From positions 7,688,001 through 7,752,000 of the forward strand of contig NZ_JACHMX010000001.1 in assembly GCF_014205155.1 (NCBI RefSeq): 64,000 nucleotides of DNA, read 5' to 3'. How positions within the stretch are numbered: position 1 is the stretch's first letter; each line of letters starts with the position of its first letter. The position numbers and the translations under genes were made by a program. Source of the DNA: Amycolatopsis umgeniensis. GTDB lineage: Bacteria > Actinomycetota > Actinomycetes > Mycobacteriales > Pseudonocardiaceae. Positions 33,669 to 53,929 of the stretch are shown here, piece after piece. The notes under the pieces are model-generated. The model searched no databases and had not been told where the DNA came from. It saw nothing but the letters and a program-made list of their open reading frames with translations.

Positions 33669-33783
33669 ACTCGCGTGATCAGGGACGTGACTCACGTGAC
33701 TGGAGGCCGCACTCGGGTGTGCGGTGCTTGATCACGCGAGTTCCGTCCCCAATCACGCGAGTTCCGGGTTTGATCACGTGAGT
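33669..33783. repeat. 21-nt periodic inverted array (locus 1 of 3)
   Basis: The core ACTCRCGTGAYY occurs at 33669 and 33690. Its reverse complement RATCACGYGAGT occurs at 33730, 33751 and 33772. Steps within each group are exactly 21 nt. A small hairpin (CCGCAC/GTGCGG) sits at the centre of symmetry. It lies in the 284-nt gap between ctaB and the MFS gene. Sister arrays are at 47050-47209 and 53794-53929. No coding or known mobile-element signal was seen. Confidence 0.75.
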
Positions 33784-33804
33784 GCGGTGCTGCTGGCCGT
33801 CGCC

Positions 33805-33857
33805 GTTGCGAAAGCCACTTTCGCAACGTTGAAGGTTGCGAAAGTGGCTTTCGCAAC
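33805..33857. repeat. Nested palindrome, GTTGCGAAAG family
   Basis: The two 23-nt arms (33805-33827 and 33835-33857) are exact reverse complements around GTTGAAG. Each arm is itself a small palindrome (GTTGCGAAAG-CCA-CTTTCGCAAC). It is identical to 62035-62087 except for one base and related to 61946-61998. It lies upstream of the MFS gene and downstream of ctaB, so it could terminate ctaB. Confidence 0.8.
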
Positions 33858-33934
33858 ACGTCCGGCCGGCGCAGGCGACTGGCGCGGGGAGGACGAAGTG
33901 CGTTGGGGCGGGTCGTGGCGTCCCAAGGGGTGAC

Positions 33935-35146
33935 ATGGGCGACGCGCGGGGTTACCCGTCGGTACCGTCCGGCGAAGTGACGTCCACAACCGAGCGCCCG
34001 GCCCCCGTCCGTGCCGAGCGCAGGACCATGGCTGTCGCCTGCTTGGTCGTCTTCACGGCCCAGATGGCGACGACGATCTACCTGCCCTCCCTCCCCGCGA
34101 TCGAGCGCGACTTCGCCGTGTCACGCAGCTTCGCGGCACTGTCGGTTTCGCTGTTCGTCATCGGCGCGGCGGCACCGGTGGTGCTGTGGGGCTGGGTGGC
34201 CGGCCGCCTCGGGCGGCGGACCGCGATGCTGGCGGCGCTCGGCCTCTTCGTCGTTTCCAGTGCGGTGCTGATCGGCAACACCTCGCCGACCTGGCTGCTG
34301 ATTCTTCGTTCCCTGCAAGGGATCGGTGCCGGTGGTGCGGCCATCGTCGCCCGTATCGCCGTCCGGGACCTCGGTGACGGCGACGCGCTCGCCAAACGGC
34401 TTTCGGTGCTGTCCATCGCGTTCGTCACGGCGCTCGGCGGCGGGCAGTTCGTCGGTGGGTTGATCGGCGGCTGGCAGGGCGGGTTCGCGGTTTTGACGGC
34501 GGCGGGGGTGATCTGCGTCGCGGGCACGCTGACGATCCCGCTCGCCCGCGGCCGCGTCGAGAAGACCGGCGTGCTCCGGATCCTCACCGTCCCGGCGTTC
34601 CTGCGGCCGACGATCGCGGCCGGACTCGGCTTCGCGACGATCGTGCTCCTCCAGGAGGTCGCCCCGTTCGTCTTCCAGCAGCATTTCGGCCTGAGCGTGG
34701 ACCAGTACGGCAGCCTCGGCCTCCTGTTCGGGCTGGCCTACTTCGGCGGCGCGTTGCTGGTGAACCGGCTGGCGAGCAGCAAGGGCTCGCCCTGGCTGAC
34801 GCGGGCGGGCGCGCTGGTCATGACGGGTGCCGGAGCGCTGACGGTCGCCTTGTGGCTGCTGCCCGGCATCCCGCTCACGGCCGCGCTCGTGACGTTCATC
34901 GCGCTGTACTGCGGGACCACCTTCGGCCAGGCCGCGCTCTTCCCGAGCAGCATGGCCGTCGCGGTGAGCACGGTTCCCGGACACGGCGCCCAGGCCGTCG
35001 CGCTGTGCGGTTTCCTCGCGCAGTCCATCGCGGGTGTCGCGGCCACGCTCGCCGTCCTGCTGCACGAGAACCTCGTTTGGGCGAGTGTCGCGACCGGCCT
35101 TTCGCTGGCGGCCTTCCTCCTGGTCCGGGTGCGCACGCGGGAATGA
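33935..35146 (+). CDS. MFS drug exporter, Bcr/CflA-like
   Basis: 403 residues from ATG 33935 (CAAGGGG upstream; GTG 33977 is an alternative). About twelve membrane helices. Early features fit the Bcr/CflA 12-TM branch: QMATTIYLPSLPAIERDF, then a WGWVAGRLGRRTAM loop (motif A) and RSLQGIGAGGAAIVARIAVRD (motif B/C region). It is probably a proton-driven exporter of small hydrophobic compounds. Its stop ends 2 nt before possible ATG starts of the next gene, so co-transcription with helD is likely. Confidence 0.85.
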   Translation: MGDARGYPSVPSGEVTSTTERPAPVRAERRTMAVACLVVFTAQMATTIYLPSLPAIERDFAVSRSFAALSVSLFVIGAAAPVVLWGWVAGRLGRRTAMLAALGLFVVSSAVLIGNTSPTWLLILRSLQGIGAGGAAIVARIAVRDLGDGDALAKRLSVLSIAFVTALGGGQFVGGLIGGWQGGFAVLTAAGVICVAGTLTIPLARGRVEKTGVLRILTVPAFLRPTIAAGLGFATIVLLQEVAPFVFQQHFGLSVDQYGSLGLLFGLAYFGGALLVNRLASSKGSPWLTRAGALVMTGAGALTVALWLLPGIPLTAALVTFIALYCGTTFGQAALFPSSMAVAVSTVPGHGAQAVALCGFLAQSIAGVAATLAVLLHENLVWASVATGLSLAAFLLVRVRTRE

Positions 35147-35216
35147 GATGATGGCGGGCGCCGTTGTACCTCTTTCGGCCCCTGTCCCACCTCTCGAAAG
35201 CAGGCTGCTTTTGTCC

Positions 35217-52851: not shown

Positions 52852-53300
52852 TGAACCTCGAAAGCATGTACCAGGAGATCATCCTGGACCACTACAAGAA
52901 CCCGCACGGCCGCGGTCTGCGCGAGCCGTTCGACGCCGAGTCGTTCCAGGTCAACCCGACCTGCGGCGACGAGGTGACGCTGCGGGTGAAGGTCGACGAC
53001 GGAAAGGTCGCCGACGTCTCCTACGAGGGGCAAGGCTGCTCGATCAGCCAGGCGTCCACGTCGGTCTTGACGGATCTCGTCGTCGGGCACACCGTGGAGG
53101 AGGCGTTCACCACCATGGACGCCTTCGTCGAGCTGATGCAGAGCAGGGGCCAGATCGAGCCGGACGAGGAAGTGCTGGAAGACGGCATTGCCTTCGCCGG
53201 TGTGGCCAAGTACCCGGCTCGCGTGAAATGCGCCCTGCTCGGATGGATGGCGTTCAAGGACGCCGTCGCCCGCACGACCAACGGAGTTGAGACGGCATGA
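52851..53300 (+). CDS. sufU: Zn-dependent sulfurtransferase SufU
   Basis: 149 residues. The three Cys and one Asp that bind Zn and accept sulfur are in NPTCGDEVTL, GQGCSISQAS and RVKCALLGW. It receives sulfur from SufS (IscU-like fold). The frame open upstream of 52851 lies within sufS and is not used. It overlaps sufT by 4 nt. Confidence 0.95.
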   Translation: MNLESMYQEIILDHYKNPHGRGLREPFDAESFQVNPTCGDEVTLRVKVDDGKVADVSYEGQGCSISQASTSVLTDLVVGHTVEEAFTTMDAFVELMQSRGQIEPDEEVLEDGIAFAGVAKYPARVKCALLGWMAFKDAVARTTNGVETA

Positions 53301-53704
53301 CCGAACAGCAGACCGAAACCCGCGAGGGGCGCACGGCCGCCGACCTCGACGCCGAGACCGCCGCCGCCCCGGACACCGCCGACTTGGCGAAGGTCGAGGA
53401 CCTCGAGGAGGCGATGCGCGACGTCGTCGACCCCGAACTGGGCATCAACGTCGTCGACCTCGGGCTCGTCTACGGCATCCACGTCGAGCCGGACAACACC
53501 GCCACCATCGACATGACGCTGACGTCCGCGGCCTGTCCGCTGACCGACGTCATCGAGGACCAGACCGGTGCCGCGCTCGTCGGCGGGGGAACGGGACTGG
53601 TCAAGGACTTCCGGATCAACTGGGTCTGGATGCCGCCGTGGGGCCCGGAGAAGATCACCGAGGACGGCCGCGAACAGCTGCGGGCGCTGGGCTTCACCGT
53701 CTGA
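53297..53704 (+). CDS. sufT: SufT-like Fe-S assembly factor (DUF59/MIP18)
   Basis: 135 residues. After a 30-residue acidic, Thr/Ala-rich N-terminus, the DUF59 domain has DVVDPELGINVVDLGLVYGI, TIDMTLTSAACPLTDVIE and WVWMPPWGPEKITEDGRE. It helps mature Fe-S proteins. It is the last gene of the suf operon and is followed by a palindrome 21 nt later. Confidence 0.93.
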   Translation: MTEQQTETREGRTAADLDAETAAAPDTADLAKVEDLEEAMRDVVDPELGINVVDLGLVYGIHVEPDNTATIDMTLTSAACPLTDVIEDQTGAALVGGGTGLVKDFRINWVWMPPWGPEKITEDGREQLRALGFTV

Positions 53705-53724
53705 CTTCCGCTTACGTGCGCTCT

Positions 53725-53766
53725 GGAAGGCCCGTTACTTGCAGTTGTGCAAGTAACGGGCCTTCC
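53725..53766. terminator. Perfect hairpin after the suf operon
   Basis: The 19-bp arms GGAAGGCCCGTTACTTGCA (53725-53743) and its complement (53748-53766) flank GTTG. It starts 21 nt past the sufT stop, so it probably terminates the operon. Its arm sequence is unlike the other families. Confidence 0.7.
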
Positions 53767-53793
53767 CAGCGTTCGGGGACCGCGATCCGCCGC

Positions 53794-53929
53794 ATTCGCG
53801 TGATCAAGCCCGGAACTAGCGTGATCAGAGGCGTGACTCGCGTGATTGGGGCCGGAACACTCAAGTTCGGCCTCCAGTCACGTGAGTTCCGGGCCCAATC
53901 ACGCGAGTGCGGTCCCTGATCACGCGAGT
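53794..53929. repeat. 21-nt periodic inverted array (locus 3 of 3)
   Basis: Three units of ACTCGCGTGAT type start at 53794, 53815 and 53836. Three inverted AATCACGCGAGT-type units start at 53876, 53897 and 53918. All steps are exactly 21 nt. The third left unit and its spacer pair with the second right unit and its spacer over 21 nt with two mismatches, so the array can fold into a long imperfect hairpin. It fills most of the 320-nt gap between sufT and the ynfA-like gene; the remainder holds the hairpin at 53725 and a short AT-richer stretch near 53965. Confidence 0.8.

What the first reader, a model, noticed from the sequence alone, without database searches (positions are those of the whole stretch)
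33669..53929. Three loci share a 21-nt periodic, inverted repeat array of unknown nature
At 33669-33783, 47050-47209 and 53794-53929 the core RATCACGCGAGT or its complement recurs with exactly 21-nt steps (about 22 in the left half at 47 kb). Each locus has two or three units in one orientation, a centre that is a hairpin or spacer, then three in the other. Two loci share the core closely; the third is a diverged version (GATCACGCGTGT). At 53.8 kb one left unit with spacer pairs with one right unit with spacer over 21 nt with two mismatches. Twenty-one nt equals two helical turns, so sites for a protein polymer on one DNA face, or a long structured RNA, are both possible. I know no described element with this design.
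Basis: partly seen in the sequence, partly recalled or inferred. Interest (0 to 1): 0.85.

Follow-up and report, generated by a model that had tools for sequence, protein, structure and literature searches.

The report
Genome-wide 21-base DNA site arrays
The three odd repeat blocks belong to a large family of short DNA arrays that sit just behind genes in part of the soil-bacterium genus Amycolatopsis, and they look like docking strips for an unknown protein rather than folded RNAs.

Summary
The 21-nt tandem core pair occurs 240 times in the window's genome (reversed control 0); I identified about 80 arrays. It occurs in 37 of 80 genomes of the genus, all or none: 10 to 348 pairs or exactly zero. 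It occurs in 0 of 232 genomes from 45 other genera of the family. Named carriers listed are Amycolatopsis (79 of 80 rows).

Typical arrays carry 2-3 units in one orientation, a fixed 29/30-nt centre, then 2-3 inverted. They lie behind stop codons: 31 convergent, 32 tandem, 2 divergent gaps. Arrays A and B are absent from 15 relatives' sites; two other sites keep arrays in eight relatives while units turn over.

Cores are kept; facing arm positions pair no better than shuffled arms, and core variants are symmetric with respect to transcription. A neighbouring hairpin does covary. So protein sites on DNA are favoured over RNA structure.

RAYT-type transposases were not found (0 of 80); Mu/Tn7-type ones do not track arrays. 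The partner protein is unknown. I judge it a new variant of extragenic interspersed repeats.

The parts
33659..33793 (.). Array A: whole element, about 135 nt, X-type end on the left (CACGTCCGCG), Y-type end on the right (GCGGTGCTGC)
   Evidence: 91% identical over the array to the copy at 2594006 elsewhere in the genome, with unlike flanks
33669..33701 (-). Array A left arm: two 12-nt cores (33669-33680, 33690-33701)
33711..33720 (.). Array A tip ACTCGGGTGT, 21 nt from the left inner core start
33730..33783 (+). Array A right arm: three cores (33730, 33751, 33772)
47050..47106 (.). Array B left part: diverged near-palindromic cores (ACACGCGTGT type) at about 22-nt steps
   Evidence: read by eye; weak
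47156..47209 (+). Array B right arm: three diverged cores (47156, 47177, 47198), mostly GATCACGYGTGT type
53774..53953 (.). Array C: whole element, Y-type end on the left, X-type end on the right (GACGCCCTTGCCCTGACCGCGAAC)
   Evidence: 87% identical to the copy at 7479820-7479975
53794..53847 (-). Array C left arm: three cores (53794, 53815, 53836)
53857..53866 (.). Array C tip ACACTCAAGT
53876..53929 (+). Array C right arm: three cores (53876, 53897, 53918)
53725..53766 (+). Separate perfect hairpin between the upstream stop codon and array C; used as a positive control for covariation
32805..33650 (+). Gene (own codon-usage call) whose stop codon array A follows by 18 nt
53297..53704 (+). 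Gene (own call) upstream of array C

Best explanation
Each array is a multi-site docking strip in the DNA for an unidentified sequence-specific DNA-binding protein. One 21-bp unit is one site (ATCACGYGWGT plus a semi-constrained 10-nt linker). Two-turn spacing puts the sites of an arm on one face, and inverted arms meeting at a short palindromic tip make the assembly two-sided. Arrays sit directly behind stop codons, between convergent or tandem genes. There the bound assembly would act as a boundary in both directions (polymerase roadblock or topological insulator). Whole arrays spread as ~115-165-nt elements and then turn over unit by unit. SHOWN: phasing, inversion, 3'-end location, dispersal of whole arrays, sites without the array in relatives, core kept while linkers change, no clear arm coupling. 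INFERRED: a protein binds, it cooperates along the strip, and the strip works as a boundary.
For: Spacing is 21 nt almost without exception. Over 364 units the core carries 1.0-2.0 bits per position (part of this is selection by the search), while the linker still carries 0.4-1.2 bits, so the whole 21 nt is the unit. At two orthologous sites (nine genomes each; five to nine per unit position) linkers differ at 24-59% of compared sites and cores at 4-23%. Facing arm positions pair no better than arms dealt at random among arrays (36 arrays; 33 oriented arrays, all positions together z 0.34 Watson-Crick, 0.76 with G-U; nine orthologs, 176 of 500 shuffles as good). In 51 tandem-gene arrays of three genomes the core changes that would keep pairing as G-U in the 3' arm, against those that would do so in the 5' arm, split 25:9 in sense arms and 36:14 in antisense arms (Fisher p 1.0). 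Location: 31 convergent, 32 tandem, 2 divergent of 65 placed, against 90 divergent of 270 gaps of at least 100 bp; in tandem gaps the array is nearer the upstream stop in 27 of 32.
Against: No binding protein was identified and no binding or expression data exist here. Avoidance of promoter regions alone would also place arrays at 3' ends. Linkers of opposite arms in one array are slightly more alike than linkers of different arrays (4.28 against 4.90 differences of 10; 0 of 1000 permutations), and inner-core pairing with G-U is reached by only 42 of 1000 shuffles: hints of coupling or of shared descent. Core position 6 differs between sense and antisense arms (p 0.03 uncorrected), in the direction opposite to the RNA model. 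The strand test takes the sense arm as the 3' arm, which does not hold for the few plus-first arrays (4 of the tandem ones). No array lies at the sites of A and B in 15 relatives, so no single site is essential. Single-arm arrays show no fixed orientation to the gene (14 sense, 6 antisense). I located orthologous units partly by core match, which favours low core divergence.
Confidence: 0.42

Rival explanations
1. The arrays are a non-autonomous mobile element (MITE-like) whose 21-bp units are transposase-binding sites, as in the ends of Tn7- or Mu-type transposons. Constraint on the core reflects transposition, not a cellular role, and 3'-end location reflects where insertion is tolerated.
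For: Some whole arrays are 91-92% alike at unlinked places with unlike flanks. 33 two-arm copies orient into one polar consensus with two different ends, three of them only weakly. Sites without the array in relatives. Tn7-like ends carry arrays of about 20-bp inverted repeats, three left and four right in Tn7 (PMC8649781, passages).
Against: Mu-transpos_C is found in 8 of 80 genomes: 2 of 37 array-bearing, 6 of 43 array-free, not in the own genome (its 14 control genomes gave no match, so sensitivity is not calibrated). Y1 transposase domain in 0 of 80. No clean target-site duplication or terminal inverted repeat seen (by eye). Two sites keep arrays in 8 of 11 examined array-bearing relatives while units turn over, not expected of decaying inserts; those two sites were chosen because they were shared. 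No exact core pair in viral contigs, no match of array C in plasmids.
Confidence: 0.3
2. The arrays are transcribed into long hairpins that act as bidirectional terminators or 3'-end stabilisers of mRNA.
For: On the + strand A and C fold to -74.9 and -86.3 kcal/mol, z -4.3 and -7.4; B -77.3, z -3.7. 3'-end location. At site A several relatives carry a perfect hairpin of another family at the same stop codon.
Against: No clear arm coupling in paralogs or orthologs, while the hairpin beside array C, in five genomes and by the same method, pairs in 100% of cells (0 of 500 shuffles; pairs with double changes 6 of 500; further pair types 137 of 500). No G-U asymmetry. Single-arm arrays exist. Site C already has a perfect hairpin before the array. 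No run of U seen just after arrays A and C on the + strand.
Confidence: 0.16
3. The arrays are selectively neutral tandem repeats that expand by slippage and are copied by recombination.
For: Unit number varies at one site. Adjacent units are more alike than units of different arrays (3.90 against 4.90 differences of 10).
Against: Cores kept against linkers. Arrays retained in eight relatives at two sites. All-or-none distribution in the genus. Strict 21-nt phase.
Confidence: 0.1

Closest known systems
REP/BIME elements (repetitive extragenic palindromes in alternating orientation)
   Same: Tens to hundreds of extragenic copies, favouring convergent and tandem gaps close to stop codons, inverted arrangement, species-specific abundance (PMC2817692 abstract; PMC3733652 passages)
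   Different: Unit is a 21-nt phased site that is not a palindrome over its length, up to 9 per arm, no GTAG/CGTC-tagged design; no Y1 (RAYT) transposase domain found in any of 80 genus genomes
Ends of Tn7-like/Mu-like transposons (arrays of about 22-bp TnsB/MuA sites; the MuA part is recalled)
   Same: About 3 + 3 sites of about 21 bp in inverted arms (PMC8649781 passages)
   Different: No cargo or transposase between the arms, about 80 dispersed copies, matching transposase domain not found in the own genome
Intrinsic terminator hairpins of actinobacteria (recalled)
   Same: Position behind stop codons, strong predicted fold
   Different: No clear compensatory change between arms; cores fixed in sequence rather than in pairing
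Iteron and centromere arrays (plasmid iterons, parC); recalled, not tested
   Same: Direct repeats spaced two helical turns for side-by-side protein binding
   Different: Genome-wide at gene ends, with inversion

Membership tests
REP/BIME with RAYT | Extragenic, high copy, depleted between divergent genes | tested here: met
   2 divergent of 65 placed arrays; 240 core pairs
REP/BIME with RAYT | Cognate Y1 tyrosine transposase in the genome | tested here: not met
   PF01797 in 0 of 80 genus genomes; control rings in 5 of 14 known genomes
REP/BIME with RAYT | Unit is itself a 20-40-bp palindrome with a GTAG or CGTC tag at one end | tested here: not met
   21-nt unit ATCACGCGAGT + linker is not an inverted repeat over its length, by reading of the consensus (the variant core ATCACGCGTGAT is a 12-nt palindrome); the CGTC linker type is one of about eight and lies inside the unit
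MITE of a Tn7/Mu-type transposon | Inverted arrays of about 20-22-bp sites at both ends | tested here: met
   38 two-arm candidates with a 29/30-nt centre
MITE of a Tn7/Mu-type transposon | Terminal inverted repeat and target-site duplication | tested here: inconclusive
   Two unlike ends; junctions against sites without the array are fuzzy
MITE of a Tn7/Mu-type transposon | Transposase present with the element | tested here: not met
   PF09299 in 2 of 37 array-bearing and 6 of 43 array-free genomes, not in the own genome; no match in the 14 control genomes
RNA hairpin terminator | Compensatory changes in the stem | tested here: not met
   positive control; one region (inner core with G-U) reaches 42 of 1000 shuffles
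RNA hairpin terminator | Transcript 3' ends at the element | not testable with these tools
   no RNA data
Rfam families | Match to a described RNA family | tested here: not met
   0 matches at gathering score in the whole window

The most novel reading that the evidence does not exclude
Part of the genus Amycolatopsis carries a genome-wide gene-end marking system: about 80 or more multi-site strips, all in two-turn register, loaded by a lineage-specific protein that polymerises along DNA and separates neighbouring transcription units. The system is gained or lost as a whole, which explains the all-or-none distribution and the near-loss in the sister genome G019.
Probability: 0.25. Interest if true: 0.82.

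Novelty: new variant of a known kind. Interest (0 to 1): 0.6.

Why it matters
It is an abundant repeat family, apparently undescribed as far as ten searches of one open library show, in antibiotic-producing actinomycetes. Its shape (21-bp phased, inverted, at gene ends) points to protein binding on DNA. Its all-or-none spread across related species gives a direct way to find the partner protein by comparing array-bearing with array-free genomes. If the boundary reading holds, it would be an unusual way for bacteria to separate neighbouring genes.

Tried and rejected
RNA hairpin as the selected feature: disfavoured, against the positive control. Sense-orientation rule for single-arm arrays: by eye 9 of 9 in the own genome; over three genomes 14 sense and 6 antisense, so dropped. 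RAYT/REP membership: Y1 domain not found. Tn7/Mu-type mobiliser. Uptake-signal reading: isolated cores are few (4 with no other core within 120 nt, of 37 cores in 469 kb). Coding heptad reading: rejected by reading the frames, not by a test; the common core variant ATCACGTGAGT puts a stop into a sense frame, and arrays lie after stop codons. One non-Amycolatopsis hit (L275, Rubripirellula MAG) lies in a histidine-rich coding repeat, taken as coincidence. Element polarity against gene direction: no preference by eye, not counted. In some searches (a capped list) no array lies before 547,743 or after 8,849,616 of the 9,225,930-base record; not tested further.

Rows dropped: from 41 two-arm candidates three with a 40-nt gap and two mis-centred (2236335, 6289082) were left out, giving 36. 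One search left out two more weak ones (1322128, 5370153) and one at a stretch edge (5549590), giving 33. The 36 arrays are a slightly different set (matched to the arrays). Four of 69 arrays were not placed (3 overlap a called gene, 1 lacks a neighbour). Genes come from my own codon-usage caller, not a standard program.

Papers: ten text searches used. Six of them paired Amycolatopsis with repeat or hairpin terms (10, 43, 44, 47, 60, 82); none listed a paper that describes these arrays by title or the start of its abstract. The 11-nt core or its complement as text is in one paper, an enzyme study (listing only). Seen: PMC3733652, PMC8649781, PMC6749651 passages; PMC2817692 abstract and outline. 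PMC6749651 counts 23 satellites in A. mediterranei without describing them in the passages seen. Most subscription papers are not in this library.

Full report
What is there. The three loci are as described, with B weaker than A and C. The core alone is not over-represented in the window (19 against 16.2 expected at up to 2 mismatches); its phasing is. Two cores 21 nt apart occur 240 times in the 9.23-Mb genome at up to 2 mismatches and never in the reversed control. In 809 kb of that genome (the window, two contiguous blocks and stretches around listed hits) I extracted 69 arrays. A search with array C adds 11 places outside that sample, for instance at 547745, 951916, 3625223, 8207516 and 8739577, so about 80 were identified; the true number is probably higher.

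Anatomy. Of 41 two-arm candidates, 38 have 29 or 30 nt between the inner cores and three have 40. In 36 arrays the arms are 3+3 in 13, 2+3 in 11, 3+2 in 6 and otherwise in 6. The centre holds a short palindromic tip; of 38, it begins like a minus unit 21 nt after the left inner core in 20 and ends like a plus unit 21 nt before the right inner core in 24. The offset of the inner cores is 40-41 nt, near four helical turns (my arithmetic). A second arrangement, plus arm first and then minus arm, also occurs, in several cases filling a convergent gap. Linkers are drawn from few types: eight four-letter words make up 333 of 364.

One element family. Thirty-three two-arm arrays orient into one polar consensus with unlike ends, about CCGGGGTGGCGCGACACCGC and CACGCCTTCGCCCTGACCGCGAACC, the last three with little support. 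Some pairs are 91-92% alike over just the array. Hence whole arrays disperse.

Where. Placed arrays: 31 convergent, 32 tandem, 2 divergent (65 of 69). The 270 called gaps of at least 100 bp are 56 convergent, 124 tandem, 90 divergent. Counting 3' ends per gap (two, one, none), the observed 31:32 is close to the 112:124 available. In tandem gaps the array lies nearer the upstream stop in 27 of 32. One of the two divergent cases is array B.

Who has it. Within the genus, 37 of 80 genomes, with none between zero and 10 pairs. In the family sample, 12 of 17 genomes of this genus and 0 of 232 of 45 other genera at zero mismatches. Exact core pair in viral contigs and array C in plasmids: none. A three-locus tree of 16 genomes puts array-free G003 beside array-bearing G016 and G022 (support 99-100), so the trait changed at least twice.

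Site history. Flanks of A, B and C were found in 15 of 15 relatives, 11 of them array-bearing. In the 330-420 nt inspected by eye next to the anchor, no array lies at A or B in any, and at C one genome (G007) has an array of another unit type. At A, several relatives have a perfect hairpin of a different family at the same stop codon. Of 40 arrays fetched from G018 and G006, 16 had gene flanks in my own-genome sample: 11 share an array at the site, 3 do not, 2 could not be judged; the sample is enriched in array sites, so this ratio is biased upward. Two shared sites were followed: arrays present in 8 of 11 array-bearing relatives each, absent in G019, G016 and G022. Units there change number and type while cores stay.

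RNA or DNA. Arms dealt at random among arrays pair as well as true arms. In nine orthologs 83.3% of cells pair against 82.7% in shuffles. The hairpin beside array C, in five genomes and by the same count, pairs in 100% of cells with 10 double-changed cells, 0 of 500 shuffles as good on both. Core variants are distributed alike in sense and antisense arms (25:9 and 36:14). I take this as recognition of double-stranded DNA. Against it stand the extra likeness of linkers within an array and a marginal inner-core result (42 of 1000).

Mobiliser. Y1 transposase domain: 0 of 80 genomes, control found in 5 of 14. Mu/Tn7-type domain: 8 of 80, not tracking arrays and not found in the own genome; its control genomes gave no match. 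Other enzyme classes were not tested.

Verdict. An abundant, clade-restricted interspersed array family; works most like a multi-site protein-binding strip at gene ends; resembles REP/BIME in location and copy number and Tn7-type ends in site layout, but fails a tested defining feature of each.

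Noticed in passing
window 33805-33857: Perfect 23-bp hairpin GTTGCGAAAGCCACTTTCGCAAC...GTTGCGAAAGTGGCTTTCGCAAC right after array A; dozens of listed matches in related genomes, many at 95-100%: a separate dispersed hairpin family.
   Followed up: no
window 46929-46992: Part of another dispersed hairpin family (GGCTGAAGGGGCCCTTCGCCGCATGCG...); relatives G018, G006 and G002 keep the whole hairpin, here its second half is missing next to array B.
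   Followed up: partly
window 53725-53766: Perfect hairpin between gene and array C with compensatory changes among five genomes.
   Followed up: yes
G019 (closest of 15 relatives, 96.8% over three loci): Only 15 core pairs against 217 in the own genome (same pattern), and both followed shared sites lack the array there: apparent mass loss in one lineage.
   Followed up: partly
L199 (G006), site of own array 3802696: About 0.8 kb of extra DNA, apparently with two short genes (the second with a helix-turn-helix look, by eye), sits beside the array where the own genome has none.
   Followed up: no
own genome arrays at 5003470, 2267852 and 6421790: Arrays abut or overlap stop codons; the stop codon lies inside or at the edge of a unit in register with the array (by eye).
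   Followed up: no
L275:2303-2403 (Rubripirellula MAG): A 21-nt coding repeat (histidine-rich) in a protein that contains the same core by coincidence.
   Followed up: yes
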